From NCBI GenBank assembly GCA_020723165.1, contig DYJK01000030.1, positions 1-33,652 on the forward strand: a stretch of DNA of 33,652 nt, written 5' to 3'. The notes under the pieces were generated by a model that saw only the letters and a program-made list of their open reading frames with translations, searched no databases and was not told where the DNA came from. The position numbers were made by a program, and so were the translations under genes. How positions within the stretch are numbered: the stretch's first letter is position 1; every line of letters starts with the position of its first letter. This DNA comes from Melioribacter roseus. GTDB taxonomy: Bacteria > Bacteroidota > Ignavibacteria > Ignavibacteriales > Melioribacteraceae. Below, piece after piece: positions 1 through 20,792 of the stretch.

Positions 1-279
1 ATAAGTTTTATCTATAATGTAGGTGATAATTATACTGAAAATTTTCATCATCAAGTTTCTTATTTGAAAAAGAAATTACCCGGTGGTTTTGCTGCTGGTC
101 CGGCAACTAAAGAATTTCTCAAAGGGTATCCAATTCAATATGAAAGCGCGGATAAATACAGTCGCTTCCAGACAGATGATGATTATTATCGTGATGATAG
201 GATGGATTATATAACAAATGAACCTACAATAACAGCAAATGCGACTGCAATCTTCGTTTTTGGATGTTTATCAAACTAA
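1..279 (+). CDS. Glycoside hydrolase family 9 (endoglucanase), C-terminal fragment
   Basis: The reading frame is open from base 1, so this is the last 92 residues of a gene that begins outside the window. Its end fits the second GH9 signature exactly: aromatic-x-D-x4-aromatic-x3-E-x-[STA]-x3-N-[STA] is read here as YRDDRMDYITNEPTITANA, which contains the family's general acid Glu. Further upstream, GDNYTENFHHQ resembles the first GH9 signature (G-x-N-x4-P-H-x-R), but Phe replaces Pro and Gln replaces Arg. GH9 enzymes mostly cleave beta-1,4-glucans such as cellulose. The protein ends right after the catalytic domain, with no C-terminal carbohydrate-binding or sorting domain. Signal peptide and other domains cannot be seen. 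It lies 130-145 bp upstream of the exopolysaccharide cluster on the same strand, but a shared transcript is not demonstrated. Confidence 0.85.
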   Translation: MSFIYNVGDNYTENFHHQVSYLKKKLPGGFAAGPATKEFLKGYPIQYESADKYSRFQTDDDYYRDDRMDYITNEPTITANATAIFVFGCLSN

Positions 280-424: not shown

Positions 425-1687
425 ATGGTTAGCTCTATACGAAGAATTCCATCAGGATTTTCTTTCATAGATAAAAATTGGGGCGGCGTTTATAGAGGCG
501 GAAGCTATTTATTAGTAGGTCCCCGAAAATCCGGAAGAACATTGGTTGGATTACAATTTGCCTTAGAAGCTGCTAAATCGTCCGAAGTTTGTCTCTTCTT
601 TACGATTATGCGTCCGAAAGATTTAATGATTCAAGCAGCATCTTTGAATTTTGATATCCAATCTTACATGAATCAGAATTTGATAATTGTTGTTAGGGTG
701 GCACCTCCAAATGATATTTATGATATGTATAATCCGGACGATTATTTAGTTGAATACTTCAACGATATAATTACGGTTGTTGATCAATATCATCCAACCC
801 GGATAATTTTTGATGAACTTACACCGTTCGTTGGTTTTAAAAATTTAGATCATTTAAGAGATACATTTCTACATACACTTGAAACAATTGAAGAAAGAGA
901 TATAACAAGTTTATTTGTAATCAGTGAACCGGCAACTCAAAAAGCTCAAAATGTAGTTGATGGATTAGGACAATTTGTTACCGGAATAATTGATCTAAAA
1001 AAAGAAGGCGGTGCCGCAGATAGATTTCACGGAGGCACAGTTACTATATCACCTAATGTTGGCCACACAGAAGGACAATTCACGGCTGATTATAGAATTG
1101 AGCCGTATAAGGGTGTAACAACAGAATTTTCTAAAGAACCTTATTATACCGCAACAGAAGAAACTCAGCCAACGTTGCCTAAACCAAGAACAATTAATAG
1201 ACCTACGAGAATAGATATTCCTTCCGAACCTTATGCGTTTTCAAATATTTATAATTACAACGACTTTTTACTGATATTAAATAATCAAATTGCGTTATAT
1301 AAAAGCACTGGGCAGACCTTTAATTTAATTTCATTCAAATTAGACCCGGCAGCGCAAGTAAAAGGATTGCTATCAATCAATCAATTACAAAATGCTATAA
1401 GACAAAGTACCACAAAAAAAGATAAAATTTGTATTGTAGAAAATAAAGTAATTGTGTTACTTGTAAGAGGAAGTTTAAAAGGTGTTGTAGATTTAATGTC
1501 TAATGTTCAAAACAATATGCCAAGTCAGGATCCGAATTATGTTAATGCTATTCTTGAATATATTTCGATTTATAATATGGAAGTTGATGAAAGAGCAGAA
1601 AATGCAGAGTCTATGATGGAATATGTTTTGAGTGCTGAGACTTCTGTTACTAATGCATATCAGCCGTTAAATAAATTTATAGGGTGA
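425..1687 (+). CDS. KaiC/RecA-like degenerate P-loop protein with GGDEF-like C-terminal domain
   Basis: About 420 residues. The N-terminal ~240 residues resemble the KaiC/RecA fold: a GGSYLLVGPRKSGRT stretch sits where Walker A belongs, but the invariant Lys is Arg (Arg38 from this start), and the tandem Glu seen in KaiC is replaced by TIMRPKD. A Walker-B-like RIIFDEL (Asp130) remains. Nucleotide hydrolysis is therefore doubtful. Residues ~270-415 have the spacing and hydrophobic pattern of a GGDEF fold, with CIVENKVIVLL in the place of the GGDEF hairpin; signature and inhibitory-site residues are absent. That assignment is inference. The layout recalls BcsE of cellulose secretion, which combines a degenerate NTPase with a degenerate GGDEF module. 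The ATG at 425 has AGGA six bases upstream and is preferred over ATG 410. The stop overlaps the next start (TGATG), so it is translationally coupled to the TPR-barrel gene. A regulatory or scaffold role in polymer secretion is inferred. Confidence 0.7.
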   Translation: MVSSIRRIPSGFSFIDKNWGGVYRGGSYLLVGPRKSGRTLVGLQFALEAAKSSEVCLFFTIMRPKDLMIQAASLNFDIQSYMNQNLIIVVRVAPPNDIYDMYNPDDYLVEYFNDIITVVDQYHPTRIIFDELTPFVGFKNLDHLRDTFLHTLETIEERDITSLFVISEPATQKAQNVVDGLGQFVTGIIDLKKEGGAADRFHGGTVTISPNVGHTEGQFTADYRIEPYKGVTTEFSKEPYYTATEETQPTLPKPRTINRPTRIDIPSEPYAFSNIYNYNDFLLILNNQIALYKSTGQTFNLISFKLDPAAQVKGLLSINQLQNAIRQSTTKKDKICIVENKVIVLLVRGSLKGVVDLMSNVQNNMPSQDPNYVNAILEYISIYNMEVDERAENAESMMEYVLSAETSVTNAYQPLNKFIG

Positions 1688-4600
1688 TGAAGGGCAGTGC
1701 AAAAATATTTTTTGCAATATGTTTAATTTTTACCACGATTATTTTTCCCCAAGATAGATCGGAAGGATTAAAACGCCAAGCCCAGTTGCTGATGAATGAA
1801 GGGCGTTATAAAGAAGCTATCGATCAATTCAACAAGTACGTTGCTGCTAATCCTCAAAAAGCCGATGGCTACCATCAACGCGGTTTATGCTACGAGAAAA
1901 CTACAGAATATCAATATTCGGTTCTTGATCTACGAAGAGCCAGAAGATTAGACCCGGGTAATCCAGAAATTCAAAGAGATTTAAATCGTGTAATTTCAAT
2001 TTGGCATCGACAATTATATCAAAAAATAGAGGGACATAAACGAGATATTGCAATTGATCCAAACTATGCTTTTAGCTATCTCGAAATTGGAAAAAGTTAT
2101 CGATGGCTTGAAGAATGGAATAACGCAGAAATTTGGTACGATGAATATTTAAAACGCGATGACAATGCCTCACCGGACGAAATTATTCGCTACACGGAAA
2201 TTCTTGCTAAAACCGGTTCGATCACCAAAGGTGAAAAAATATTAAAAATATTTGTTGATCGTTATCCTGAAGATTGGAGATTGTGGAGCAGATACGGTTA
2301 TTTCACTTTATGGCTCGGTAAATTCAAAATTGCCGAGGATGCATTTGTAAAATCATTAGGTTTTAAACCGTTCTTCAAAGAAGCTGAAGACGGGCTTGAT
2401 CTGGTAAGAAATCAAGCATACCTTGTTCAATATCAGCCGCGATCTTATGAACGTGTTTATCCTATCGATAGATATTATGCTGTACTAAACAAAGACCCGG
2501 AAAATGATCAAGTAAGATTTGATTTGATTAATGAATTGATGACTGCTAATCGTTATGAGGAAGCATATCAACAATTGCAGCTTTTGCAAGGTAAATATGT
2601 TAACGATGAGAGATTTCAATCGTTGTTGAAAACAATCAGTGACTACCGCGACAGCACATACAGTAATGTAATATCCCAATACACTGAAATATTGAAAAAT
2701 GATCCTTCCAACAAAGAAGCAGTTTTAAAATTATCAGAAGCTTATGCTAATCTCTTTTATTATGATAGTGCGATTGAAGTATTAAGAGAGTATTTAGAGT
2801 TAATACCTGATGATGAACAGCTTGATGTGAGATTTATGTATGCAAAATACAGCGCATGGAATTATGAGTGGGAAAATTCGATTGCTCAACTGAATAAATT
2901 ACTTGAACTAGATCCGAATAATTTGGATTATCAATTGTTAAGAGGGCAGATTGCCGTATGGACTGTACTTGATTTTGACATCGGAGAAAAATATTTATTA
3001 AATGTGATTGCTTATCGCCCAAATGAACTTAGCGCTTATATATCTTTAACATCGCTCTATTCATGGAAAAAAGATTTTCCAAATGCGAAAAAATACCTTG
3101 ATGAGGCTAAAAGAATTGCGCCGAATAACCCTGAAGTAGAAAGTGCACAAAGCAACTACGAACTTCATCTTTCAGCATATGAAGAACTAAAAGTTTTTGA
3201 AATTAAAGCAGAAGCCGGGAAACTTGTTCTTGATGGCGATTGTGAAGGAGCCCGTCATAAATATGAAGAATATTTTACTAAGCGCACTGCACCATCAAGA
3301 GATGAACTTATTGAATATGCTGACATTGTTACATGTGCCGGCGATTATTCGAAAGCAATTGAAATATATGATCAATTATTAAATGAAGAATTCGACTACC
3401 GCCTGGCATTACAGAGGGCTAAAAACTATTATTTTAATAAGGATAGTCTTTCTGCCGTTAATGAATTAGAAAGTTTGAATAGGTTAAGACCGGATGATAA
3501 TGAAACTAAAATGTTTTTAGCAGATGCTTATGCCGTAACGCTGCAAACATCGAAAGCCGACTCAATCTACCAGGAATTACTTTCAGTAACGACAGATTCG
3601 ACAGAAAGAAAGACACTTCATCAAAGGATGGCTATTTTAGGTGAGTATTATATTCGTAACAAAGAATTGAATAAAGCAGATGAAATTTACAATAACTTAT
3701 TGGCAACGGTATATGATCCGGAGATAGTTCAAGATGTAAACCGACGAAGGTTGTATCTTGGAGATGCTTATGCATTAAATGACGAATGGGGAAAAGCCGA
3801 AGATATATATGATGAACTATTGGATACTGCTTCGGACACTGCCGAAATAAGAATGTTAAAACAGAGAATCGAATGGATTCCACCATCGGGATTCAGAAAA
3901 GGGATTACAAGTTTTGGAAATCTGCTCTATTATTTTGTTCCTACAAATATTGGCTTATCACCTTTTTCAAATTACTATGTTGATAATCAAGATTTCCGAT
4001 TAACAACATATGGATTAAGAGTAGATGGAGGTTTTATAGGTTTTCTCGGATTGGGAGCTCTGTGGAGCAGAACAAATATTGATGTTGGATCTTTCGATAG
4101 AAATTTTACTACGTTCAAAGGGGTTGCAACATTATTCTTTTCGAGAATTGTCTCTCTTAGTGCAAGTTACGGCAATCTTAATATTCCAGGTGAACCTAAC
4201 AAGTCTGTTGGAGATTTAGCTATAAGAATCGAGGAACCAAATCGTTTTTCATTAGTAGGATATTATGAAAATAATGATGCAAGGTTATTGTTATATTCGC
4301 CAAATATGTTATTCACAAGACTTAAATCACAGCTGTATCGTTTCTCAGGGTATTATCAGCACCGGGATGTGATGAGGATTTCAGCAACATATTCTTATTA
4401 CGATATATCAGATAATAATGAAGGTAACGACATTCAGTTTAGATTAGGTAGAAAATTTTTTGACAACGGAATGTTTGGATATGAGTATTTCTTTTCCGAT
4501 TATGCATTTATTTCGCAATACTATTATTCGCCGCAAAATTTTTCTTCACATAGTATATGGGGTGAATATATTTATAATCCGGATGAATCATTAAAAACAC

Positions 4601-4791
4601 GATTTGGAGGTAAAATTGGCTATGTTCCCGATGTAGATTTTATTCTAAGTGAATTTTTTAGTGAAGTTAGCTATTACCCATTTAAGCTACTGAATATTAC
4701 AGCAAGATTAGGACTATCAAATAGTTTTCGATATGATTCAAGTTATAAATCTCTTAATGTTTCAGTATCAGCATATTTGTCGGTCTTTTAA
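1687..4791 (+). CDS. TPR-repeat outer-membrane beta-barrel protein, exopolysaccharide export (PgaA/BcsC-like)
   Basis: 1034 residues. It has an N-terminal signal peptide (KIFFAICLIFTTIIFPQ). Next comes a long TPR superhelix, residues ~25-725, with many recognisable 34-residue units such as GRYKEAIDQFNKYVAANP and YDSAIEVLREYLELIPDD. The last ~300 residues (from ~730) form a probable outer-membrane beta barrel: alternating aromatic and polar strands and a terminal Phe, the usual barrel-assembly signal. This order, periplasmic TPR followed by a C-terminal barrel, is that of PgaA and BcsC, which lead beta-linked polysaccharides through the periplasm and out of the cell. ATG 1687 overlaps the previous stop; GTG 1684 is the only nearby alternative. 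With the GT2 synthase downstream, the inferred job is polymer export. Which polymer is exported cannot be read from the sequence. A YaiO-like barrel without an export role is the main alternative. Confidence 0.78.
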   Translation: MKGSAKIFFAICLIFTTIIFPQDRSEGLKRQAQLLMNEGRYKEAIDQFNKYVAANPQKADGYHQRGLCYEKTTEYQYSVLDLRRARRLDPGNPEIQRDLNRVISIWHRQLYQKIEGHKRDIAIDPNYAFSYLEIGKSYRWLEEWNNAEIWYDEYLKRDDNASPDEIIRYTEILAKTGSITKGEKILKIFVDRYPEDWRLWSRYGYFTLWLGKFKIAEDAFVKSLGFKPFFKEAEDGLDLVRNQAYLVQYQPRSYERVYPIDRYYAVLNKDPENDQVRFDLINELMTANRYEEAYQQLQLLQGKYVNDERFQSLLKTISDYRDSTYSNVISQYTEILKNDPSNKEAVLKLSEAYANLFYYDSAIEVLREYLELIPDDEQLDVRFMYAKYSAWNYEWENSIAQLNKLLELDPNNLDYQLLRGQIAVWTVLDFDIGEKYLLNVIAYRPNELSAYISLTSLYSWKKDFPNAKKYLDEAKRIAPNNPEVESAQSNYELHLSAYEELKVFEIKAEAGKLVLDGDCEGARHKYEEYFTKRTAPSRDELIEYADIVTCAGDYSKAIEIYDQLLNEEFDYRLALQRAKNYYFNKDSLSAVNELESLNRLRPDDNETKMFLADAYAVTLQTSKADSIYQELLSVTTDSTERKTLHQRMAILGEYYIRNKELNKADEIYNNLLATVYDPEIVQDVNRRRLYLGDAYALNDEWGKAEDIYDELLDTASDTAEIRMLKQRIEWIPPSGFRKGITSFGNLLYYFVPTNIGLSPFSNYYVDNQDFRLTTYGLRVDGGFIGFLGLGALWSRTNIDVGSFDRNFTTFKGVATLFFSRIVSLSASYGNLNIPGEPNKSVGDLAIRIEEPNRFSLVGYYENNDARLLLYSPNMLFTRLKSQLYRFSGYYQHRDVMRISATYSYYDISDNNEGNDIQFRLGRKFFDNGMFGYEYFFSDYAFISQYYYSPQNFSSHSIWGEYIYNPDESLKTRFGGKIGYVPDVDFILSEFFSEVSYYPFKLLNITARLGLSNSFRYDSSYKSLNVSVSAYLSVF

Positions 4792-4868
4792 AATTAATAT
4801 AGATACAATTATTGTAGTTTAATTTATACTAAACCTAATTTCAATTCGATTATTCAAAACAAACAATT

Positions 4869-6167
4869 ATGAAAAAACTAACACTTATCTTACTATCACT
4901 TTTTTTATTATTCTCAGGACAATTATTTCCGGCAGATAGAATTTGTGATGTCGAAGAATTTTTATTGATAGATAATCCGGAAGTATTCTTATCGTTAACT
5001 TACATTTCAAGTTCGGCCTTTATTGACAATTCGTTTGTAGCCACTCAGAAACAACTTGGTAAATTTGTACCAATTACCGGTAATGTAAACCAGCTTAAAG
5101 TTTTTTTCGATGCACTAAAGAACGTCGATAATAAAGTTATCAGGATAGCTCACTACGGTGATTCGTTAATTCAAGGTGATGTTATTTCTGAATATTTAAG
5201 AGATAGATTTCAAAAAAAATTTTCAGGTAAAGGTGCCGGGTACCTTGCAATTATTTCTAATGACATTAAAATTAGAAATTCAACTAAGCACACATACTCT
5301 GATGATTGGAATTATGTTGCAATCACTACCCGCAATCCAGATAGATTACCTTTCGGAATTGGAGGGTCGGTTGCTGTTCCCAAACATGGAAGCTGGGTTA
5401 AGTATCAAGCAACTCAATATTTAAGTTCTACCAACTCGTTCGACTTGATTAAAATATATTACAGTCATGCTGATGAAAATAGTACTATCGAATATACTGT
5501 CAATGAAAAAGCTTATAAAAAAATAAATTTAAAACGGGGTGAGAATGTTCAAGAATTAATACTCGAGTTGGGAAAGAATTCCACTTCTATTGAAATAAAA
5601 TTTATATCGGGTAAAATTCCATACTTATATTCTGTCAGTTTAGAATCAGGTGATGGTGTTTATCTTGATAATTTTGCTATGCCCGGGAATACCGGTTCAT
5701 CATTATTAGATATTCCCAAAAGTGTAATATCTGATTTTAATAAATACAACGAATACAGACTTGTAATTTTAAACTACGGGGCTAATGTTTCGTCACCAAA
5801 CAAAGGTATATATACACTTTACGAAAATAAGATGGTGACACTTATTGAAGAATTTAAGAAATTATTCCCCAAAGCTGGATTTTTATTGGTTAGTGTTGGT
5901 GATAAAACTGCCAAAAAGGGTAATAGTTTTGTTACAAATCCAGATGTTCCACTTTTGCTTGAATCCCAAAAACGGATTGTAGCGAAAACTAACATTGCTT
6001 TCTGGAATCTATGGGAAGCGATGGGTGGCATCAATTCAATGATTGAGTGGGTTAATGCAAAACCACCTATGGCACTTAAAGATTTTGCTCATTTCACTCC
6101 TAATGGCGGTGCAAGAGTCGCAGAGTTACTATTTGATGCTATTATTGATTCGTACAATAAGTTCTAA
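4869..6167 (+). CDS. Secreted SGNH/GDSL-family hydrolase
   Basis: 432 residues with a signal peptide (LTLILLSLFLLFSGQLFPA). The SGNH blocks are visible: HYGDSLIQGD with nucleophile Ser99, the block III Gly-x-Asn at G304-A-N306, and the block V Asp-x-x-His at D405-F-A-H408. The opening HYGDSLIQGDVISEYLRDRF resembles peptidoglycan or polysaccharide O-acetylesterases of the Ape1 type, which begin with a similar GDS-x-x-x-x-D stretch. Between the blocks lies a ~130-residue insert (about 155-290) that looks like a beta-sandwich module, as in two-domain SGNH acetylesterases. It lies 77 bp after the export-barrel gene, with no clear ribosome binding site. By position it probably trims or adds acyl groups on the polymer in the periplasm; peptidoglycan is an alternative substrate. 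The family is well supported, the substrate is not. Confidence 0.75.
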   Translation: MKKLTLILLSLFLLFSGQLFPADRICDVEEFLLIDNPEVFLSLTYISSSAFIDNSFVATQKQLGKFVPITGNVNQLKVFFDALKNVDNKVIRIAHYGDSLIQGDVISEYLRDRFQKKFSGKGAGYLAIISNDIKIRNSTKHTYSDDWNYVAITTRNPDRLPFGIGGSVAVPKHGSWVKYQATQYLSSTNSFDLIKIYYSHADENSTIEYTVNEKAYKKINLKRGENVQELILELGKNSTSIEIKFISGKIPYLYSVSLESGDGVYLDNFAMPGNTGSSLLDIPKSVISDFNKYNEYRLVILNYGANVSSPNKGIYTLYENKMVTLIEEFKKLFPKAGFLLVSVGDKTAKKGNSFVTNPDVPLLLESQKRIVAKTNIAFWNLWEAMGGINSMIEWVNAKPPMALKDFAHFTPNGGARVAELLFDAIIDSYNKF

Positions 6168-6377
6168 TTTCACTTGATATAATTAAAGCGATTAGGTGTA
6201 TTTCTTAGACCTTTTATTGAAGACTTCCTAATAACTTATTTACTTGCAATAGTTTAAATAAAAAATTATATTGTTACTAAGAATGTCTGAAACTGAGCCA
6301 TCTTCAATAAAATGTTTGTCGTTGGTACAAAAGAATATTTGGAATCTGGCGATTTCGTTTATTTTCAAATACTTTTA

Positions 6378-6392
6378 TGGCACCTATTTTGT
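6378..6392 (+). promoter_or_regulatory. Sigma-54-like -24/-12 promoter before the GT2 synthase
   Basis: TGGCACCTATTTTGT matches the sigma-54 consensus TGGCAC-N5-TTGC except for the last base (T for C), with the correct spacing between the -24 GG and the -12 G. Transcription would begin near 6403, about 23 bases before the GT2 start codon. It sits in a 258-bp gap, the largest inside the cluster, so the synthase and later genes may have their own start point. An activator binding site was not recognised. The match could be chance in AT-rich DNA. Confidence 0.45.
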
Positions 6393-6425
6393 CTATTATT
6401 AATGACTAAACTTGCTTGTGATTAA

Positions 6426-7853
6426 ATGTCTGACAAACAAAGATTTCAAATAGCGCTTGATAACCGGGAAATTAAACCTCCGCAAAGAAATGTTTCAAAA
6501 GAAAATCTACGCACAATTTTCATTTCAGGTTTAATCTCAATTCTACTGATAATCAGTATTATAATTTTTATGCCTTTGACTGTGTTAACGTGGAGTGGTC
6601 TGTTTGTTTATTCTTCTATCGTCTCACTTGTAATTTTCTTATTTATACTTTTGATACGATATTTTGCAATATTGTTCTTAGCATATTTTTATATGACAAG
6701 ATATTCTGTGCATTCTAAACCCGGTTATTTTCCCTTTGTTTCGATCATAGTCCCGGTATTTAATGAAGCCGTTATATTAAGAAATTCAATCGAATCCTTG
6801 CTTGATATTGACTACCCCAATTATGAAATAATTATTGTTAATGATGGATCGACGGATGATACTGCCGCCGTGGGTGAAACATTAGTGGGTTACCATCAAG
6901 GTAGAACCGGTATGATAAAAGTTTCGTTGATTAATAAACCTAATGGTGGCAAATCGAAAGCGCTGAATGCCGGTATTCAATATTCAGAAGCGCAGTTCGT
7001 TTTATGTATGGATGGTGATTCGCAGTTAACTTCAAATACATTGAAGATGGCTATGAGACACTTTGACGATCCGGCTGTTGGTGCTGTTGCCGGCAACGTT
7101 AAAGTGCAGAATCGTAAAAAGATGTTGACCGATCTTCAGGCACTTGAATATTTGGAAGGACTTAATCTTGCGCGTAGTGCACAAGGTTTTATTCAGATGG
7201 TTAATATAATTCCAGGTCCTATCGGGGTTTTTAGAAAAATTACTTTACGGGATGCCGGTTTTTATTCGAGCGATACTTTTGCGGAAGACGCAGATGTCAC
7301 ATTAAAAATTTTAGCTAAAGGATGGAAAATAATTTACGAACCGAATGCTATTGCATATACTGAAGCGCCATCAAGTATCTACCAACTACTAAAACAAAGA
7401 TATCGTTGGACAAGAGGTATACTGCAAGCTATTAGAAAACATAAAAGATATCTTTACAATCCAACAGTTAATTTTAATAATAGTTTTATAATGTGGTCGA
7501 TGTTCTATGAGGCTTTAATATGGCCGGCTATGAATATTTTTGTTAATGTTTATTTTATTATTGTAGCGCTTTTATATGGTATTCATATAACGCTATTTTT
7601 GTGGTGGGTGGGGATTGCTGTCTTAGATCTAATGTCAGCTGTTTTTTGTATAGCCGCTGAAAAAGAAGAATTTAGATTGGTTCCATATGCAATTGTCTAC
7701 CGTTTATTTTTTATTTTATTAATTGATGTAACCAAAGCAGCTGCTACAGTAGAAGAATTTTTAGGTGTAAAGATGACTTGGGGGAAACTAGAGCGTACCG
7801 GAGCTGGAAATGTTCCCTCAAAGAAACCGATACCAAGTGTTGCCGGTAAATAA
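6426..7853 (+). CDS. Processive GT2 glycosyltransferase, PgaC/IcaA-like polysaccharide synthase
   Basis: 475 residues. Two membrane segments (about 29-54 and 57-90) precede a cytoplasmic family 2 catalytic domain, and at least three more follow (about 355-410 and 420-445). All processive-synthase motifs are present: Asp140 in IIIVNDGSTDD, the Asp-x-Asp at D196-G-D198, the base in EDAD (Asp288), and QRYRW (Q324, R327, W328). Such enzymes join nucleotide sugars into a beta-linked chain and push it through the inner membrane. The layout is closest to the poly-N-acetylglucosamine synthases PgaC/IcaA, but hyaluronan- or cellulose-type products cannot be excluded. There is no PilZ domain, so control by cyclic di-GMP would have to come through a partner. 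The small membrane protein follows after only 24 bp, and a sigma-54-like promoter lies just upstream. Confidence 0.9.
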   Translation: MSDKQRFQIALDNREIKPPQRNVSKENLRTIFISGLISILLIISIIIFMPLTVLTWSGLFVYSSIVSLVIFLFILLIRYFAILFLAYFYMTRYSVHSKPGYFPFVSIIVPVFNEAVILRNSIESLLDIDYPNYEIIIVNDGSTDDTAAVGETLVGYHQGRTGMIKVSLINKPNGGKSKALNAGIQYSEAQFVLCMDGDSQLTSNTLKMAMRHFDDPAVGAVAGNVKVQNRKKMLTDLQALEYLEGLNLARSAQGFIQMVNIIPGPIGVFRKITLRDAGFYSSDTFAEDADVTLKILAKGWKIIYEPNAIAYTEAPSSIYQLLKQRYRWTRGILQAIRKHKRYLYNPTVNFNNSFIMWSMFYEALIWPAMNIFVNVYFIIVALLYGIHITLFLWWVGIAVLDLMSAVFCIAAEKEEFRLVPYAIVYRLFFILLIDVTKAAATVEEFLGVKMTWGKLERTGAGNVPSKKPIPSVAGK

Positions 7854-7877
7854 TTAGAATTTTTCATTGAGGTTAAA

Positions 7878-8360
7878 ATGGAATTAATTCCAATACTTTC
7901 TTTAATAATTCTTGTCGCAACAATTTCAACATTCATTTTGGCGGTTGGGGCTTACATACTTTATAAGGTTAGAGAACGTAAAGGTGTTGGTGCACAAGCA
8001 CCACAGCCAGCTGCTATTCCGGCAGAATATGTTACACCGGCACCTCTTGTTGAACAGAGACCGGCTCAACCGGAAAGAAGAACTTTTGAAGTTGTAGCAC
8101 ATCAGCAAGAATATGATTATCAGCGCCAGCCTTCGTATCCACCCCAACAAGAGAATAGGGGACCTGAACTGAGGCCTACTTTTGTTGGCTCTGGACCTGG
8201 ATATTCTGAAAAATATCAAAAACTTACTCCAACCGGTGAAAGATCAACTGAAGGAGATAAGTATGCTTCAAAGCGGAAATTTATGAGATATACAAACGAA
8301 GGTTACGTTGAAACTTCGAAGCAAGAAAAGAAACAAGAGGATAACCTAAGGTGGCGGTAA
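7878..8360 (+). CDS. Small single-pass membrane protein with Pro/Gln-rich tail
   Basis: 160 residues of unknown function. An N-terminal membrane helix (about 4-30, IPILSLIILVATISTFILAV) is followed by the basic stretch KVRERK, which suggests the tail is cytoplasmic. The rest is low in hydrophobic residues and rich in Pro, Gln, Glu and Arg, so it is probably disordered. A GAGG-type ribosome binding site precedes the ATG. The gene sits between the GT2 synthase and the pseudo-deacetylase gene and overlaps the latter by 10 bases. By position it could be a small synthase partner similar in role to PgaD, which is also a short membrane protein next to PgaC, although I see no clear sequence match to PgaD. 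No homologue is recognised. Confidence 0.7.
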   Translation: MELIPILSLIILVATISTFILAVGAYILYKVRERKGVGAQAPQPAAIPAEYVTPAPLVEQRPAQPERRTFEVVAHQQEYDYQRQPSYPPQQENRGPELRPTFVGSGPGYSEKYQKLTPTGERSTEGDKYASKRKFMRYTNEGYVETSKQEKKQEDNLRWR

Positions 8361-10252
8361 AAAGTGTTCGCGGCTTAAGAGTTAATTATCTAATAATATT
8401 TCTCAGCGGCCTTGTACTTCTTATTACTGGTATTCTTGTCTTTTTGCTCATAGTTAGAAATATATATGGCAGCTATGAGATTAAAGAAATATTGCCCACA
8501 AAAAACAATCTTAAATCATTATCCTCTGAGGATAGATCCGGGAAAGTTGCAATACTCTATTCCCAGTATACAGAAAATATGTTACCTTCCGGCAGTACAT
8601 GGTTAAAGGATAACATTGATTATTGGAAGAAGTTTACAAAAAATGCCCGGATGAATTATGATATCATTTCGGACCAAACAATTGAACTTGCAAAACATCT
8701 TGAATACAAATTAATCGTCCTTCCAGGTTCTAAATCCCTAAGTGATAAACAAATTATTCAGTTAAAGAGATATCTTGAAAAAGGAGGAAGTTTATTTGTT
8801 ACCGGCGGACCAGCGACTTTTTCTGACGAAGGAAAGTGGCGTGGGTGGGAATTCTTTACCGAAGTTTTTGGAATGAAATTCAATAGGGAAATTAAACCGG
8901 AGGAAACATATAAGGTTCATACACTACGAGGTAATTTACCTTTAACTGCCGGTGTACCAACCGGTTATACATTGAAAATAGCAACTTGGGATCGCCCAAT
9001 TTATGCTGAAGTTCTTGAACCAAGGACTACACAAGTAAGTTTTTGGTATGATTTCAGGAAAGAAGCCGGCTTGGTTCGTGAAGAAATAGAAAAAAGTGCT
9101 GGTATAGCTTTTGGCTCATATGGTAAAGGACGTTTTGTTTGGTACGGATTTGAATTGAGTTCAGTTCTTGGTGTTCAGAAAGATTATATATACTTCGAAA
9201 AACTTTTTAATAATTCACTAAATTGGTTGACATACCAGCCGACAGCTTTTGTGAAAGATTGGCCTTCGCCTTATGATGGAGCTTTGGTTTTTATTCCTAC
9301 ATTAACTGAAAATATTGGAAATATTACAACATTAAATAGTTTAATAAATTTCAAACAGTTCCCGGCAACATTTTTTATTAATCCTGAAAAGGGCTTGAAA
9401 AATTTAGGTCTCTTAAAATCATTAGGCAGCAAGGGAGATGTAGGGGCAATAATTGACATCGGTTTTATTGAATTTCCCGAAGATACTCTTAACAAACTAT
9501 TCTCTAAAGAGACACAGTTTTCAAATATTGGTTTTGCGACAGACACTCTTTCAAAAATATTGGGTAAAAAAGTTGATGCTATTATGCCGCAATATGGTTA
9601 CTATGATGATAATACATTGCAAGCAATGGCATCTAAAAATATTAGTTTCCTTGTTACAGATTCTTTAACAGATCGATCTGTACCGGAAATCAGGTTCAGA
9701 AATGATAAACCAATTATGGTTATTACAAAGACTGCACGCGATGATTATGAAATCGTGAAAAATTACGGGTTGGTCAATACCGATTTTCAACGTTATACTT
9801 ACGAGGAGGATATCGATAGAATTTTATTTGAAGGTGGATTATATGTTTTTAAAGTACATACTAATTATCAACTTCAACCTCAGTATGCTTCAGTCATTAG
9901 GGATGTTTTACGTTACGCAAAAAATAAAAATATGTGGATTACTTCACTTAATGGGTTAAAGGCATGGTGGTCTAGAAGGCAAGGTGTTGAAGTTAGGTAC
10001 GAAGAAAGAAGCAAAAGAAGAATTGCAGTAGAATTTACTAATCCTAGCGATAACCCGACCACTGATATTGTTGTGCAAGTTAACCTGAACAAAAAAGTAA
10101 AGAATGTAATCGTTTCATCAGATATAATTAATACCGATATACCAAGATATGAATTAAGGAATGACAACCAAACGATCTATTTTTATTTAGAGAGAATGGG
10201 ACCTCATGAGACACGATCTTTGTTGGTAGACTTTGATAACATTGAAGCGTAA
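8351..10252 (+). CDS. Membrane-anchored protein with amidotransferase-like and degenerate NodB polysaccharide-deacetylase-like domains
   Basis: 633 residues. An N-terminal membrane helix (about 12-35) anchors a large extracytoplasmic part. Residues ~70-300 look like the class I amidotransferase/ThuA-like fold (KLIVLPGSKSLSDKQ, then EKGGSLFVTGGP). Residues ~305-540 follow the NodB deacetylase order: PSPYDGALVFIPTLTEN stands where the catalytic TFDDG region belongs, and IMPQYGYYDDNTL (Met412 to Gly416 core) replaces the usual RPPYG loop. The Asp-Asp pair, the His-x-x-x-His metal site and the Arg are missing, so deacetylation is unlikely. A beta-sandwich tail of ~90 residues ends the protein. 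The GTG start overlaps the preceding gene by 10 bases; GAGG lies 10 bases upstream. Active deacetylases such as PgaB modify the polymer in related systems, so a polymer-binding role is inferred. Domain limits are approximate. Confidence 0.65.
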   Translation: MAVKSVRGLRVNYLIIFLSGLVLLITGILVFLLIVRNIYGSYEIKEILPTKNNLKSLSSEDRSGKVAILYSQYTENMLPSGSTWLKDNIDYWKKFTKNARMNYDIISDQTIELAKHLEYKLIVLPGSKSLSDKQIIQLKRYLEKGGSLFVTGGPATFSDEGKWRGWEFFTEVFGMKFNREIKPEETYKVHTLRGNLPLTAGVPTGYTLKIATWDRPIYAEVLEPRTTQVSFWYDFRKEAGLVREEIEKSAGIAFGSYGKGRFVWYGFELSSVLGVQKDYIYFEKLFNNSLNWLTYQPTAFVKDWPSPYDGALVFIPTLTENIGNITTLNSLINFKQFPATFFINPEKGLKNLGLLKSLGSKGDVGAIIDIGFIEFPEDTLNKLFSKETQFSNIGFATDTLSKILGKKVDAIMPQYGYYDDNTLQAMASKNISFLVTDSLTDRSVPEIRFRNDKPIMVITKTARDDYEIVKNYGLVNTDFQRYTYEEDIDRILFEGGLYVFKVHTNYQLQPQYASVIRDVLRYAKNKNMWITSLNGLKAWWSRRQGVEVRYEERSKRRIAVEFTNPSDNPTTDIVVQVNLNKKVKNVIVSSDIINTDIPRYELRNDNQTIYFYLERMGPHETRSLLVDFDNIEA

Positions 10253-10389: not shown

Positions 10390-11643
10390 GTGAATCAAAA
10401 GAAAAATATTACCAATCTAAAACTGTTATTCGCAGTTTTGCTAACTGCCGCAGCAATTACCGGGTGTGTAGAAAACTTAACAGATACGACACAGAATGCA
10501 ACCCCTACAATTGAAATTTTCTCGCCAGCGACTAACGACAGCGTACAAATTGGTGAGAATACGATAAACTATTATGCAGCAGATGGAACCGGTGGAAGTG
10601 GATTATCATTCTATGAGGTTTATCTTAATGATGGATTTATACAAAGGTTCGAACAAAACTCTGACGGAACTAATCCCGAAATATATTTGACTGTTGATTC
10701 AACACTAATAGGTTCTAGAATTTCTTACTTTGTTAAAGTGTATAATGAGAATGGACGATCAAAAGAAAGCACCAAGCAAACAAATATTTATGTAAAAGAT
10801 AAACCTCCGGCAGCCCCCTCAGATTTATTCTTAACAAGAATTAATGATTTTTCAGTTAATATGTTGTGGAGTGATAATTCGAGCAACGAATCAGAATTTG
10901 AGTTGTGGCGAAAAGACGGGGGATCAGGCATATACCGTAAGATTAAAACATTGCCTCCAAATACAATTAGTACTGATGATAATGGTCTATCTCCATTTGT
11001 AGATTATTTTTATAAGGTAAGAGCTCATAATAGTTCAGGTTATTCTGATTTCTGTGATGAAGCAAGCACATCGAGTATTCCGGGTGGTCCTTGGAATTTG
11101 GAAGCTGAAGCTATCGGCGCCAGTGTAGTACGCCTTAAATGGACAGATTTTGCTGTCAACGAATCCGGGTTTATCATTGAACGAACGAATTCATTTACAA
11201 ACAGTTTTGAACGTGTTGCTATAGTCAATCGAAATATTACAGAATACGAAGACAATACTGTGCAAGCAAGTACGGGCTATAGATATCGTCTTGCTTATTA
11301 TACTACAACTTCTATAAGCGGCTATTCGAATGAGGTTTCTATATCAACATTTTACATAGATGTTAATGGCCCGACTAATTTAACTGCCGAATATTATTCA
11401 CCGAACAATGTTGTAATATTGAATTGGGAGGATAATACAAATCTTGAGAAAGGTGTTATTGTCGAACGTAAAGTCGATTCCGGAGAATTTGTTGAGTATG
11501 GAAAATTTGATCAAGACGATATTACAGCAGCAAATGATGCCGGTGTTGAAAGCGGTAGGACTTATTATTATAGGGTCAGACAAATTTTAGGTACCAAAAC
11601 TTATACACCATATTCAAATACGGTTAATATTACAATTCCGTGA
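10390..11643 (+). CDS. Lipoprotein with one Ig-like and three fibronectin type III domains
   Basis: 417 residues. A signal peptide ends in the lipobox AITGC (Cys26), so it is probably an outer-membrane or periplasmic lipoprotein. Residues ~38-135 resemble a bacterial Ig-like fold (a TPTIEIFSPATNDSV opening). Three FN3 repeats follow at about 138-230, 233-322 and 328-417; each begins with Pro-x-x-Leu and carries the W-x-D-x-S/T-x-x-E strand (LWSDNSSNESEFEL, KWTDFAVNESGFII, NWEDNTNLEKGVIV). There is no catalytic domain. The start is GTG without a clear ribosome binding site. The stop lies eight bases before the hybrid-kinase start, so the two are probably co-transcribed. Binding to the polymer or to cell-surface partners is inferred from the domains and from the cluster. 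Confidence 0.75.
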   Translation: MNQKKNITNLKLLFAVLLTAAAITGCVENLTDTTQNATPTIEIFSPATNDSVQIGENTINYYAADGTGGSGLSFYEVYLNDGFIQRFEQNSDGTNPEIYLTVDSTLIGSRISYFVKVYNENGRSKESTKQTNIYVKDKPPAAPSDLFLTRINDFSVNMLWSDNSSNESEFELWRKDGGSGIYRKIKTLPPNTISTDDNGLSPFVDYFYKVRAHNSSGYSDFCDEASTSSIPGGPWNLEAEAIGASVVRLKWTDFAVNESGFIIERTNSFTNSFERVAIVNRNITEYEDNTVQASTGYRYRLAYYTTTSISGYSNEVSISTFYIDVNGPTNLTAEYYSPNNVVILNWEDNTNLEKGVIVERKVDSGEFVEYGKFDQDDITAANDAGVESGRTYYYRVRQILGTKTYTPYSNTVNITIP

Positions 11644-11651
11644 TTAATTAA

Positions 11652-14600
11652 ATGGCTACTGAAACAAAAAATACTGATTCAAAAACTCATTCAAACTTAC
11701 CAAGTTTAATTATTGATAAATCCGGAAGGGTGATTGCGTCGAATGTAGAATTAAAGAATGTTCTTCCGGCTTTGCAGCCTAATATTAATTTCTTTGATAT
11801 TTTTAATGAGAAACAACTGCTGACTATACAAAGAATTTTTATTGATGCGAGAAAATTTGATGCTACTGCAAAAGATATTATAGAATTGGTTATAGATAAT
11901 AATGCTAAAAATTTTGAAATAATTTTTAATCCCCTTAAAAGTGAAAATAATGTTTATTACCTAATCACATTATCGGAGCTTCAAGAATCAAAATCTACCG
12001 CTGTTACCACAAAGTTTTCTATTTCGATTCCTGAATTAGAAAAAATAACATCTGATAAGAGAATATTATCGATAGTAAATAAAATAAAATTATCATATCC
12101 GTTCACTTTTATCGAGAAAGCCAAGATTCAAAAAGAAATAAATGAGTTAAACGAATTCTTCTGGCTAAAAAACATAGATGGTAAATTTATTTTAATAAAT
12201 GATGCATACTCTCAAACACTTGGGTTTTCCTCTTCACAAATTGAAAATAAAAACGAACAAGATTTTCTGCCTAAGTACTTAATAAACCTTTATAAAATAG
12301 TTGAACAATATATTGTGGAATCAACAAATGCTGTAGTATTGGAGGGTTCTGCAATACCGTCATTAAATGGCGTTAATAAGAATATTCACATTGTACAATT
12401 TCCTATCATAGATCTAGATAATAAAGTTGTAGCTATCATAGGATTCTCCCAAAAAACGGCTGTAAAACAAATCACCGAACAATCAATCTTGAACCCGGGA
12501 TACTTCAAAAATCTTTCTGAAGCAGTTTTACTACTAGACGCTGAGAACAAAATCGAAGCGTATAGCAATGAATTTGTAAAAATATTGCTGTTAAACGATC
12601 AAGTGGATTATAAGAAGAATGATTTACACAAGATATTCGATAAAGATTTTGTTCAATTACTGGAAACGTATTTAGCTGATAATAAAAACACTGAAAGTCT
12701 TGATACAACTTTTACGTTTGTTGAAAAAGGGAATTTGAAAACAGAAATAAAGGTCTATAAATTTTTTGACTTCGGTGGTATTTATAATGGGGCGCAAATC
12801 ATATTTATACAAAAGAATGAGTTGCAGTTGTTGACTGAAAGTAAGGCACAACTCTATGATTCAATTATTCAAAACAGTCCGGTTGCGATGTTTATTTATG
12901 ACTTAGAAAATTTGAAATTCCTTGAAGTAAACGATTCTGCCCTAAAGCTTTATGGATATAAGAGAAATGAATTTTTAAATATGGATCTTACTGATTTATA
13001 CGCTCCTGAAGATATTCAAACATTAATACAATCGGGCGATAATAAAACTTTAAATTCGGGTTTATGGCGTCATAAAAAAAGTGATGGTACTTCAGTACTT
13101 GTAGAACTAAGTAGGAATTCAATCGAGTACAAAGGTAAAAAGGCACATCTCAATTTAGTACGTAATGTTACTGATGAAATAAATGAAAAGAAGCGCGTTC
13201 AATTATTACAATCCGTTTTTGAAAATACAAGTGACTTAATAATTTTGGCGGATAAAGACGGTTTTATTAAAGAGATAAACGAACATGTAACAAAAAAATT
13301 TGGTTACTCAAAGAAAGAGTTGGAGTCTAGACCGTTTATAAGTCTTGTCTCCGATGATGATAGAGCTAAGGTAAATAAAAATATTTTTCATTCGGGTTTA
13401 CTAAAAACCTCGTCAATCGAAGTAGATATTAAAAGACCGTCTGGTAATATGTTGAAAAGTTTGATTGTTGCTACGCCTATCAAAGATTATAATGGGGATG
13501 TTGAAGAATACACTCTGGTTATTAAACCAAACGAAGAAAAATCCGGTACAAAAGATTTGAAACATACCCAGGATGAAACCTTAGACAAAATTGATGCATC
13601 ATTCCTATCGAATATGTTCCATGAAATACTAACGCCTATCAACGTGATATTGGGTTTCACTCAAGAATTATGGGAAAGTCTCGGTACTCCTTCCGATGAA
13701 CAAAAAGAAGCTGTAGATATTATTAAGGAAAATCAGAAACTACTTATGCAGATTATGGACAATGCCGTTGAGTACTCTGCACTGCAGCAGAAAATAATAA
13801 AATTTAGACCGGAAGAATTTAGATTTATTGAAGTACTGGATGAGCTAAAGGAGAATACAAAGAAGTTTTCCGAATCGAAAAAGTTAGAAATTGTGTACGG
13901 CAAAATATCATCGTCATTAACTGCTGAGACCGATCGCCAGAAGTTAGTTTCATTAATAAGTGAGTTTTTGAAATTTGCAATTCAAATCACGAAGGAAAAT
14001 ACTCTCTTTTTATCTGCCAAAAATTATGATGACAATAATTTTGTTGTAACCGTTAAAGATACGAGATCGATAATTACCCCGTTTTTATATAAAGGATTGA
14101 ACGATGTTTTATCAGATGAAGAAACTGCGAGCAGAAAAAATTTCGGATTCTCAAGATTCTCGATGAGATTAGTTAATAAATTAATCCAGTTATTATCGGT
14201 TAGAAAAGAAGCTGTTATGAAAGATAATGATGTTATTGAATTCGGCTTGGTTATACCGATAAAGTTTGTACCCGTTGAAAAAGTATCGATAGAAGTTGAA
14301 TCACCTAAGCAAATTAAAGAATCAAGAGTTGTACAAAAACCTTATATCAAAGAACAACCAATATCAACTGTTCCGTCACAGCCAAAAGAATTAGACTTAT
14401 CTCAGCTATCGTGCTTATATTTAGAGGATCAGGTTGATTCACAAATTCTATTTAAAAACCAATTGAAGGAATTGAAAAGTATAGAATTTGCACCAAGCTT
14501 TGAAGTTGCTCTGCCTTTATTAAAAACGAAAAAATTTGATTTTATTATTATGGATATTAATTTACAAGGTGAGTATAACGGTTTGGATGCTTTGCGTATT

Positions 14601-14765
14601 TTACAAAAGATGCCGGGTTACAAAGATTTTCCTATAATTGCATCGACAGCATATATGCAGCCGGGTGCAAGAGATAATTTTATAGCCGCCGGGTTTACAG
14701 ATTTTATTCCTAAGCCGCTTTTACGGGATAAAGTTATTGAAACCTTAAAAAGAATTATGAAATAA
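11652..14765 (+). CDS. Soluble multi-PAS hybrid histidine kinase with degenerate ATPase domain and C-terminal receiver
   Basis: 1037 residues with no membrane segment or signal peptide. Four or five PAS domains are visible, at about 15-115 (weak), 165-275, 285-395, 401-515 and 522-630. A HisKA-like helix pair follows with the phospho-acceptor His657 in MFHEILTPIN. The ATPase domain is worn: the N-box Asn is absent (EFLKFAIQIT, about 770-780), the G1 Asp-x-Gly-x-Gly reads DTRSIIT (Asp803), and only traces of G2 remain (NFGFSRFSMRL). The C-terminal receiver (about 915-1037) is complete: acidic pair Glu925-Asp926, phospho-acceptor Asp968, Thr999 and Lys1021. ATP binding is therefore doubtful, while receiver phosphorylation remains possible. 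As the last gene of the run it probably senses a cytoplasmic signal and controls polymer production or secretion; the partner is unknown. Confidence 0.82.
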   Translation: MATETKNTDSKTHSNLPSLIIDKSGRVIASNVELKNVLPALQPNINFFDIFNEKQLLTIQRIFIDARKFDATAKDIIELVIDNNAKNFEIIFNPLKSENNVYYLITLSELQESKSTAVTTKFSISIPELEKITSDKRILSIVNKIKLSYPFTFIEKAKIQKEINELNEFFWLKNIDGKFILINDAYSQTLGFSSSQIENKNEQDFLPKYLINLYKIVEQYIVESTNAVVLEGSAIPSLNGVNKNIHIVQFPIIDLDNKVVAIIGFSQKTAVKQITEQSILNPGYFKNLSEAVLLLDAENKIEAYSNEFVKILLLNDQVDYKKNDLHKIFDKDFVQLLETYLADNKNTESLDTTFTFVEKGNLKTEIKVYKFFDFGGIYNGAQIIFIQKNELQLLTESKAQLYDSIIQNSPVAMFIYDLENLKFLEVNDSALKLYGYKRNEFLNMDLTDLYAPEDIQTLIQSGDNKTLNSGLWRHKKSDGTSVLVELSRNSIEYKGKKAHLNLVRNVTDEINEKKRVQLLQSVFENTSDLIILADKDGFIKEINEHVTKKFGYSKKELESRPFISLVSDDDRAKVNKNIFHSGLLKTSSIEVDIKRPSGNMLKSLIVATPIKDYNGDVEEYTLVIKPNEEKSGTKDLKHTQDETLDKIDASFLSNMFHEILTPINVILGFTQELWESLGTPSDEQKEAVDIIKENQKLLMQIMDNAVEYSALQQKIIKFRPEEFRFIEVLDELKENTKKFSESKKLEIVYGKISSSLTAETDRQKLVSLISEFLKFAIQITKENTLFLSAKNYDDNNFVVTVKDTRSIITPFLYKGLNDVLSDEETASRKNFGFSRFSMRLVNKLIQLLSVRKEAVMKDNDVIEFGLVIPIKFVPVEKVSIEVESPKQIKESRVVQKPYIKEQPISTVPSQPKELDLSQLSCLYLEDQVDSQILFKNQLKELKSIEFAPSFEVALPLLKTKKFDFIIMDINLQGEYNGLDALRILQKMPGYKDFPIIASTAYMQPGARDNFIAAGFTDFIPKPLLRDKVIETLKRIMK

Positions 14766-16504: not shown

Positions 16505-17656
16505 TTATTTAACCGAGAATTTATAAATAGCAGTATGTGTGTAAATTTCTCCGGCATTTAATCGAACAGTAGGGAATTGAGGATTATTTGGCGAATCAGG
16601 AAAATGCTGTGTCTCTAAACATAAGCCCGTTCTATACTGATATTTAATTCCACTTTTCCCGGTTATAGAACCATCTAAAAAATTTCCACTATAGAATTGT
16701 AGCCCAGGTTGATCTGTGAAAATTTCCATCAGTCTTCCACTTGAGGGATCATATAAACTCGCACATTTAAAAATCTTTTCCTGATGCTTATTCAATACCC
16801 AATTGTGATCATAACCTTTGCCAAATTTTAACTGTTCATTATTCATTTCGATATCTTTCCCAATTTTCTTTGGTGTGCGAAAATCGAAAGGCGTGTTTGC
16901 TACATCCATAAAATCTCCCAAAGGAATTAGTTTATCGTCAACCGGTGTAAATTGGTTGGCATCTATCATCAATTCGTGATCAAGGATTGTCTTTGTTAGG
17001 TCGCCGGTAAGATTGAAATAAGAATGATTAGTAGGATTGAGGATTGTATTTTTATCAGTTGTAGCGGAATAATCAATAACTAATTCATTATCGTTCGTTA
17101 AAATATAAGTGATATTTATTTCGACATTACCGGGATATCCTTCTTCGCCATCAGCACTAAAATGTTTTAATGTGATTTTCTCACCGTTTTTAGTTGTGTC
17201 ATATTCGGTTACAGTCCAGAGTTTCTTATTTATACCGTGCTTACCGCCATGCAGATGATTTTCGCCGTCATTAATAGTTAGTTGATATTCTTTCCCATCG
17301 AGTTTAAAAAATCCTTTTTTAATTCTGTTGCCGTATCTGCCTACTGCTGCACCAAAATATGATTTACATTTTTCATAATCTTGTACAGAATCATAACCAA
17401 GTACTACATCCTTATAAACGCCGTCTTTATCGGGGACAATTATTTTAACAATAACAGCACCATAATTTGAAATATCAACTTTGGCACCATTCTTATTTTT
17501 TAAAGTATAAACGAATACTTCACTTCCGTCTGATAATTTCCCGAAAGATTTTTTCTGCACCATTGCAGTGTTTTCAATTTGGGATTTACATGATAAGTTT
17601 AATATTAATGTTAAAACTAGAAGTGATAATAATTGAATAGTATTTTTCATCTTCAT
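16505..17656 (-). CDS. galM: Aldose 1-epimerase (mutarotase), exported lipoprotein form
   Basis: 383 residues. It interconverts alpha and beta anomers of aldoses. Family motifs are clear: NRIKKGFFKLDGKEYQL, ENHLHGG (about 132-138), the catalytic His211 in NPTNHSYFNL, and the catalytic Glu348 in GLCLETQHFPDSPN. Unlike the cytoplasmic GalM of enterobacteria, the N terminus has a signal peptide ending in LNLSC (Cys23), so the enzyme is probably anchored in the cell envelope and works on sugars before or during uptake. The ATG at 17656 is preferred to the GTG three bases upstream. It lies 76 bp downstream of xylA on the same strand, so xylose is the likely main substrate, although the family is broad. 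Two stop codons in a row end the gene. Confidence 0.9.
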   Translation of the reverse strand: MKMKNTIQLLSLLVLTLILNLSCKSQIENTAMVQKKSFGKLSDGSEVFVYTLKNKNGAKVDISNYGAVIVKIIVPDKDGVYKDVVLGYDSVQDYEKCKSYFGAAVGRYGNRIKKGFFKLDGKEYQLTINDGENHLHGGKHGINKKLWTVTEYDTTKNGEKITLKHFSADGEEGYPGNVEINITYILTNDNELVIDYSATTDKNTILNPTNHSYFNLTGDLTKTILDHELMIDANQFTPVDDKLIPLGDFMDVANTPFDFRTPKKIGKDIEMNNEQLKFGKGYDHNWVLNKHQEKIFKCASLYDPSSGRLMEIFTDQPGLQFYSGNFLDGSITGKSGIKYQYRTGLCLETQHFPDSPNNPQFPTVRLNAGEIYTHTAIYKFSVK

Positions 17657-17732
17657 CACTCGCTAATTATTGTTCATACTGAAAATATTTGATTGATGAT
17701 TGAGAATCCATTAATAATAATAAATTTTAAAA

Positions 17733-19061: not shown

Positions 19062-19148
19062 TCTTCACCTTTATATTTATTTAGTTAACAATTAATTCTC
19101 ATCTGCCATAATGATATTCTTTAACGTTCAATGTAAGTTATAATTAGA

Positions 19149-20633: not shown

Positions 20634-20676
20634 TAATTATTCTCCGTGTTGGTCAAATACTTTTATAAATAATTAC

Positions 20677-20693
20677 GGTGTATAAAATACACC
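20677..20693. promoter_or_regulatory. Perfect 17-bp palindrome, likely operator of the xylose regulator
   Basis: GGTGTATAAAATACACC has two 7-bp arms that are exact reverse complements around AAA. It lies in the 159-bp gap between the divergent xylB and regulator genes, 44 bp from the xylB start. Nudix-type sugar regulators bind palindromes of about this size next to their targets, so this is the best candidate operator. No second copy was found near xylA, galM or the downstream lipoprotein gene. Confidence 0.7.
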
Positions 20694-20737
20694 TATGAGC
20701 AAATATCCTACATTTATAATAAGTATTTTTATAATGT

Positions 20738-20765
20738 TTGACAAGCACGTTTAAGTTCATAATAT
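20738..20765 (+). promoter_or_regulatory. Promoter of the Nudix regulator gene
   Basis: TTGACA (20738-20743, exact -35 consensus) and TAATAT (20760-20765) are 16 bases apart. Transcription would begin about 20773, some 20 bases before the ATG. The operator-like palindrome lies 44 bp upstream of the -35 box, so the regulator might control its own gene only indirectly or by looping. Confidence 0.6.
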
Positions 20766-20792
20766 TGCGCTTACAGATTTCTTAAGGAATTT

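What the first reader, a model, noticed from the sequence alone, without database searches (positions are those of the whole stretch)
425..1687. BcsE-like architecture: broken KaiC/RecA domain joined to a GGDEF-like domain without its signature
Walker A has Arg for Lys, the KaiC tandem Glu is missing, and the C-terminal ~145 residues follow the GGDEF fold pattern with CIVENKVIVLL at the signature hairpin. Enterobacterial BcsE, a cyclic di-GMP receptor in cellulose secretion, also combines degenerate NTPase and GGDEF modules. A parallel or distant homologue here would supply the missing nucleotide control of a PilZ-less synthase.
Basis: partly seen in the sequence, partly recalled or inferred. 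Interest (0 to 1): 0.72.

Follow-up and report, generated by a model that had tools for sequence, protein, structure and literature searches.

The report
Dead-enzyme scaffold for polysaccharide export
A protein fused from two enzyme domains that have both lost their active sites is almost always found beside one sugar-polymer export machine in two bacterial classes, resembles a known E. coli cellulose regulator without being related to it, and occurs in bacteria that appear to lack the signalling molecule that E. coli regulator senses.

Summary
ORF 425-1687 (420 aa, Melioribacteraceae) is a KaiC-fold domain (Z 27.6) joined by a flexible linker to a GGDEF-fold domain (top PDB matches are GGDEF domains, PelD included, Z about 12). 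Both are catalytically dead: Walker A Lys is Arg (65/74 close relatives, 29/30 sister-class relatives), the catalytic Glu pair is gone, GG[DE]EF is replaced. The protein heads a conserved cluster: scaffold, TPR outer-membrane protein, PilZ-less GT2 synthase, single-pass membrane protein with a conserved cytosolic tail, periplasmic GATase/NodB-like protein. The order is kept in a sister class; the single-pass protein co-occurs with the scaffold (36/39 versus 1/257 genomes).

The BcsE parallel is apt in architecture and context, even to a BcsF-like partner, but sequence homology is undetectable (hhalign probability 0.5%) and there is no REC domain. The proposed cyclic di-GMP control is not supported: the I-site Arg is missing (0/74), 25/25 genomes lack PilZ, 24/25 lack EAL, and the only GGDEF protein in each of 13 Ignavibacteriales genomes is itself degenerate. 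Best reading: a pseudo-enzyme scaffold, docked by the single-pass protein, that assembles or gates the synthase without c-di-GMP. No function was measured.

The parts
425..1687 (+). Pseudo-KaiC / pseudo-GGDEF protein (420 aa). Residues 1-235 KaiC fold (nt 425-1129), 239-272 disordered linker, 276-404 GGDEF-like fold (nt 1250-1636)
518..541 (+). Walker A remnant GPRKSGRT (residues 32-39; Lys replaced by Arg38)
599..622 (+). FTIMRPKD (residues 59-66): conserved segment replacing the KaiC catalytic Glu pair (FEE)
1412..1423 (+). TKKD (residues 330-333): I-site position of GGDEF domains, Arg absent
   Evidence: alignment
1424..1462 (+). KICIVENKVIVLL (residues 334-346): hairpin holding the lost GG[DE]EF signature
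1684..4791 (+). TPR outer-membrane protein (PgaA/BcsC-like role); its start overlaps the preceding stop (GTGATG)
4869..6167 (+). GDSL/SGNH-like protein, present in part of the family's clusters
6426..7853 (+). GT2 processive synthase (PgaC-like, QRYRW motif), no PilZ domain
7878..8360 (+). Single-pass membrane protein with conserved TM segment and tail motif FMRYTNEGYV ... LRWR; candidate anchor (BcsF-like role)
8351..10252 (+). Membrane-anchored periplasmic protein with weak GATase-like and NodB-like stretches
10390..11643 (+). fn3-domain protein, conserved downstream neighbour in Ignavibacteriales
11652..14765 (+). PAS hybrid histidine kinase with receiver domain, frequent downstream neighbour

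Best explanation
The protein is a cytosolic pseudo-enzyme scaffold for a synthase-dependent exopolysaccharide secretion machine. The KaiC-fold domain has lost its ATPase residues; the GGDEF-fold domain has lost its diguanylate cyclase residues and the c-di-GMP I-site. Shown here: the two folds, loss of the catalytic residues, deep conservation, fixed gene order with TPR porin, GT2 synthase and single-pass protein, and co-occurrence with the latter. Inferred: the conserved cytosolic tail of the single-pass protein docks the scaffold at the synthase, much as BcsF docks BcsE in E. coli, and the scaffold holds or switches the GT2 synthase into its active assembly without c-di-GMP. The kept P-loop shape with Arg leaves room for passive nucleotide binding. 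BcsE and this protein would be two independent inventions of the same design.
For: Folds. Catalytic loss against intact KaiC paralogs of the same order; Arg38 in 65/74 and 29/30. Gene order kept in nearly all loci long enough to show it and in the sister class (L075-L077, L082, L083). Single-pass protein in 36/39 genomes with the scaffold and 1/257 without; five Ignavibacteriales genomes without the scaffold also lack it. Tail motif F..YT.EG(Y/F)V plus a Trp at or next to the C-terminus conserved across classes. BcsE/BcsF precedent: PMC11470070 and PMC7439463. No recognisable c-di-GMP system.
Against: No interaction or phenotype data exist, and docking by the tail is an analogy. Co-occurrence within one operon and one phylogeny is not independent evidence of contact. 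The tail motif is absent in the G179 lineage and in G003, although each keeps a single-pass protein. Nine close relatives have a Walker A Lys, so nucleotide binding could be the real function in some.
Confidence: 0.55

Rival explanations
1. ATP-sensing switch like archaeal ArlH/FlaH: the KaiC-fold domain binds ATP without hydrolysing it, and the ATP-bound form stimulates the machine, so polymer export follows energy status.
For: FlaH with ATP is a close fold match (4yds, Z 24.2). ArlH binds ATP, does not hydrolyse it and controls a membrane motor (PMC8978795). P-loop glycines and Thr39 are kept in Ignavibacteriales, and 9/74 have Lys.
Against: Arg for Lys in 65/74 and 29/30; in most sister-class members the following Thr/Ser is also lost (GRG, GRD). 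The trans-acting KxRG is lost.
Confidence: 0.22
2. c-di-GMP receptor of the synthase: the GGDEF-like domain binds c-di-GMP and activates the PilZ-less GT2, as in BcsE or PelD.
For: GGDEF fold with PelD among the matches; RxxD kept in 21/28 sister-class proteins.
Against: I-site Arg in 0/74 close relatives. PilZ in 0/25 genomes, EAL in 1/25. GGDEF in 1/12 sister-class genomes; the only GGDEF protein in each of 13 Ignavibacteriales lacks the signature.
Confidence: 0.07
3. The GGDEF-like domain senses another nucleotide, such as c-di-AMP or (p)ppGpp, and relays it to the synthase.
For: Deep conservation of the domain, and of RxxD in sister-class lineages with almost no recognisable diguanylate cyclase.
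Against: No nucleotide pocket identified; the most conserved part is the first helix (DFLLILNNQIALYKSTGQ), which looks more like a protein contact.
Confidence: 0.1
4. Ordinary KaiC-family ATPase or kinase with an accessory C-domain, active despite the Arg.
For: Strong KaiC similarity; Lys in nine relatives.
Against: Catalytic Glu pair absent in the whole alignment and the trans Lys/Arg lost, while intact KaiC paralogs exist in genomes of the same order.
Confidence: 0.05

Closest known systems
BcsE (with BcsF), E. coli type II cellulose secretion
   Same: Degenerate RecA/KaiC-like NTPase domain plus degenerate GGDEF domain; cytosolic; encoded with a GT2 synthase, a TPR outer-membrane protein and a small single-pass membrane protein with a cytosolic tail (PMC7439463, PMC11470070)
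   Different: No detectable sequence homology; no REC domain; no I-site RxxD; synthase has no PilZ; hosts show no recognisable c-di-GMP signalling; encoded at the head of the synthase cluster
PelD (Pel polysaccharide)
   Same: Degenerate GGDEF domain in a synthase-dependent polysaccharide system; fold match Z 11.7
   Different: PelD has four predicted TM helices, a GAF domain and the c-di-GMP RxxD site (PMC8461298); this protein has no TM segment, a KaiC domain instead, and no RxxD in the window lineage
ArlH/FlaH and cyanobacterial KaiC
   Same: KaiC fold (Z 24-28); ArlH is a non-hydrolysing regulator of a membrane machine (PMC8978795)
   Different: Here a single KaiC domain fused to GGDEF*, Walker A Arg, no Glu pair
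PgaCD (PNAG synthase)
   Same: PgaC-like GT2 (198.7 bits, below the 422.3 cut-off) encoded with a small membrane protein
   Different: PgaC activity depends on c-di-GMP bound together with PgaD (PMC8461298); no KaiC/GGDEF scaffold is part of the described Pga system

Membership tests
BcsE (PF10995) | Sequence match to the family profile | tested here: not met
   No PF10995 match in the window protein or genome; hhalign probability 0.5% to E. coli BcsE
BcsE (PF10995) | Degenerate RecA/KaiC-like N-terminal NTPase fold | tested here: met
   KaiC Z 27.6, degenerate motifs
BcsE (PF10995) | Degenerate REC domain between NTPase and GGDEF | tested here: not met
   The model shows KaiC strands to residue 232, a disordered linker 239-272, then the GGDEF-like domain
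BcsE (PF10995) | Degenerate GGDEF domain | tested here: met
BcsE (PF10995) | RxxD I-site binding c-di-GMP | tested here: not met
   Arg at the -3 position in 0/74 close relatives; kept in 21/28 sister-class relatives
BcsE (PF10995) | Membrane docking by a single-pass BcsF tail | not testable with these tools
   A single-pass protein with conserved tail is encoded in the cluster; binding could not be tested
KaiC family (PF06745) | Profile and fold match | tested here: met
   75.1 bits over cut-off 26.6; Z 27.6
KaiC family (PF06745) | Catalytic Walker A Lys and tandem Glu | tested here: not met
   Arg38 and no Glu pair
Diguanylate cyclase GGDEF | GGDEF fold | tested here: met
Diguanylate cyclase GGDEF | GG[DE]EF signature and first metal-binding Asp | tested here: not met
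   ENKVI at the hairpin; FKLD with Lys at the first Asp position
PelD | TM helices plus GAF plus RxxD | tested here: not met
   No TM segment in the window protein; no RxxD

The most novel reading that the evidence does not exclude
A regulatory module convergent with BcsE-BcsF (pseudo-KaiC/pseudo-GGDEF scaffold docked by a single-pass tail) controls a previously undescribed exopolysaccharide synthase system in two bacterial classes without c-di-GMP, so that a degenerate GGDEF domain serves as a pure scaffold or senses a different signal.
Probability: 0.45. Interest if true: 0.75.

Novelty: new variant of a known kind. Interest (0 to 1): 0.62.

Why it matters
Degenerate GGDEF domains in polysaccharide systems such as PelD and BcsE are c-di-GMP receptors. 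Here is a widespread case in organisms that appear to have no c-di-GMP, next to a dead KaiC domain whose Arg substitution is conserved across two classes. It makes a direct test possible: can a pseudo-NTPase/pseudo-GGDEF scaffold assemble a synthase without any cyclic dinucleotide? The repeated appearance of the same design would suggest a general solution for docking cytosolic regulators on GT2 synthases. It also marks a conserved export cluster for which no description was found in the open-access library searched.

Tried and rejected
Homology to BcsE: rejected on PF10995, BLASTP and hhalign. BcsE was also not among the listed fold matches, which by itself proves nothing. Viral relatives: none found. 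c-di-GMP control: weakened by the genome surveys. Chance resemblance of the C-domain to GGDEF: rejected by folding it alone. Pfam on the window's C-domain alone gives no GGDEF hit, so the sequence signal comes only from sister-class relatives. Promoter and terminator scans were at the shuffled background and were not used. Literature searches for KaiC with exopolysaccharide in Ignavibacteria or Rhodothermus found nothing describing the cluster; only open-access papers were searched. Interaction of scaffold and tail could not be modelled, because only single chains can be folded here.

Full report
What is there. ORF 425-1687 encodes 420 residues. The window lies in a genome of 3.8 Mb whose nearest named relatives are Melioribacter and other Ignavibacteriales. 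The start at 425 aligns with the family and follows AGGAA; the stop at 1685-1687 overlaps the next start (GTGATG), so the gene sits at the head of an operon-like run. Upstream, bases 1-279 are the end of a GH9 glycoside hydrolase.

The N-terminal domain. Pfam KaiC/ATPase scores 75 bits. The AlphaFold2 model built on 74 sequences (mean pLDDT 83) matches KaiC at Z 27.6 and FlaH at Z 24.2. The chemistry is gone. Walker A reads GPRKSGRT, with Arg in 65 of 74 close relatives and Lys in nine. In 30 relatives from another class of the phylum, Arg is kept in 29, while the next Thr/Ser is mostly replaced by Gly or Asp. Aligned with true KaiC paralogs found in genomes of the same order, which keep GKT, FEE and KxRG, this family has no Glu pair and has PNxG in place of KxRG. 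An Arg this conserved over such distance, together with the kept RP(K/R)D and WGG motifs, argues for selected retention of a pseudo-ATPase rather than decay; that step is inference.

The C-terminal domain. Folded alone it gives pLDDT 88 and pTM 0.82. The Foldseek hits at E<=0.001 are GGDEF-containing chains, PelD among them, and VIA-align gives Z 12.3 to a diguanylate cyclase and 11.7 to PelD. Counting from Asp333, the signature reads E-N-K-V-I, and the first Asp of the DxD in strand 1 is Lys (FKLD). Sister-class members still give weak GGDEF_2 (E 0.0007) and PelD_GGDEF (E 0.003) matches. So this is a degenerate GGDEF domain, most likely by descent. None of 74 close relatives has the I-site Arg, but RxxD stands in 21 of 28 sister-class proteins (the 21/28 was counted by eye from the printed sequences).

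The company it keeps. In nearly every locus with enough flank the order is scaffold, TPR outer-membrane protein, (GDSL protein), GT2, single-pass protein, GATase/NodB-like protein, then fn3 protein and histidine kinase. The core order is the same in the sister class, where GT2 keeps 52-55% identity. The GT2 has the processive QRYRW motif and no PilZ. The single-pass protein has one nearly invariant TM segment, a basic stretch after it that puts the tail in the cytosol (positive-inside rule), a Pro/Gln-rich spacer, and a conserved end F..YT.EG(Y/F)V with a Trp at or next to the C-terminus. Across 296 genomes of the phylum it was found in 36 of 39 with the scaffold and 1 of 257 without (the one is a weak match); Fisher p about 1e-41, inflated by shared ancestry and operon linkage (the 39 are the strong matches, E below 1e-25). 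G222, one of the three misses, does encode a small membrane protein with the same tail motif directly after the scaffold (L080: scaffold ends 10292, next starts 10325). Five relatives without the scaffold also lack the single-pass protein.

The signalling background. PilZ was found in 0 of 25 genomes and EAL in 1. In 12 sister-class genomes GGDEF occurs once, in the same GGDEF-EAL protein. Each of 13 Ignavibacteriales genomes has exactly one GGDEF-family protein, GAF-GAF-GGDEF where its domains were checked, and in all 13 the signature is degenerate (for example RLSEKIFAVYF). Unless an unrecognised cyclase exists, there is no c-di-GMP for the protein to sense.

How it most likely works. In E. 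coli the single-pass BcsF adds a strand from its cytosolic tail to the degenerate NTPase domain of BcsE and holds the regulatory complex around the synthase (PMC11470070); the BcsE N-domain was itself modelled on KaiC and judged unable to bind or hydrolyse ATP (PMC7439463). The window system has the same set of roles: dead NTPase, dead GGDEF, single-pass protein with a conserved cytosolic tail, GT2, TPR porin. By analogy the tail docks the scaffold at the synthase, and the scaffold assembles or gates the machine. Shown: folds, dead sites, gene order, co-occurrence. Inferred: docking, effect on the synthase, absence of c-di-GMP in the cell. The main rival is passive ATP sensing as in ArlH (PMC8978795).

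Same as known or not. It works like BcsE, as far as anatomy can say, but is not a member: no PF10995 match, hhalign probability 0.5%, no REC domain, no I-site. It is best called a new, probably convergent variant of the degenerate NTPase/GGDEF regulator. No description of the cluster was found in the open-access library searched.

Noticed in passing
window 1-279: C-terminal end of a GH9 glycoside hydrolase (Pfam 42 bits) directly upstream; could act on a beta-glucan, but its linkage to the cluster elsewhere was not checked.
   Followed up: partly
L032 1583-3481 (genome contig C116) and L165-L176: Each of 13 Ignavibacteriales genomes keeps exactly one GGDEF-family protein (GAF-GAF-GGDEF in the window genome), with a degenerate signature: a second conserved dead GGDEF in organisms without recognisable c-di-GMP enzymes.
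   Followed up: partly
L145, L148, L149, L152, L153; also G041: Tandem copies of the scaffold gene; in L145 the extra copies lack the GGDEF domain and one has Walker A GKT, suggesting possible hetero-oligomers.
   Followed up: no
L038 (G003) 4737-9364: Divergent cluster: scaffold with Walker A GSKNSAKS, a TPR protein, a GT2-like protein that seems to have lost its catalytic motifs, and a single-pass protein without the tail motif. Possibly a second, non-catalytic version.
   Followed up: partly
sister-class loci L181-L210: RxxD at the I-site position is kept in 21/28 proteins although 11/12 sister-class genomes tested have no GGDEF match; ligand, if any, unknown.
   Followed up: partly
window 8351-10252: Membrane-anchored protein with weak GATase-like and NodB-like stretches, conserved in the cluster in both classes; role unknown, maybe polymer modification or periplasmic bridging.
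   Followed up: no
window 16505-21479: NUDIX domain fused to an AraR/NrtR-type winged helix (20793-21479), divergent from FGGY kinase, isomerase-like and aldose epimerase genes on the minus strand: looks like an ordinary sugar-use operon with its regulator.
   Followed up: no
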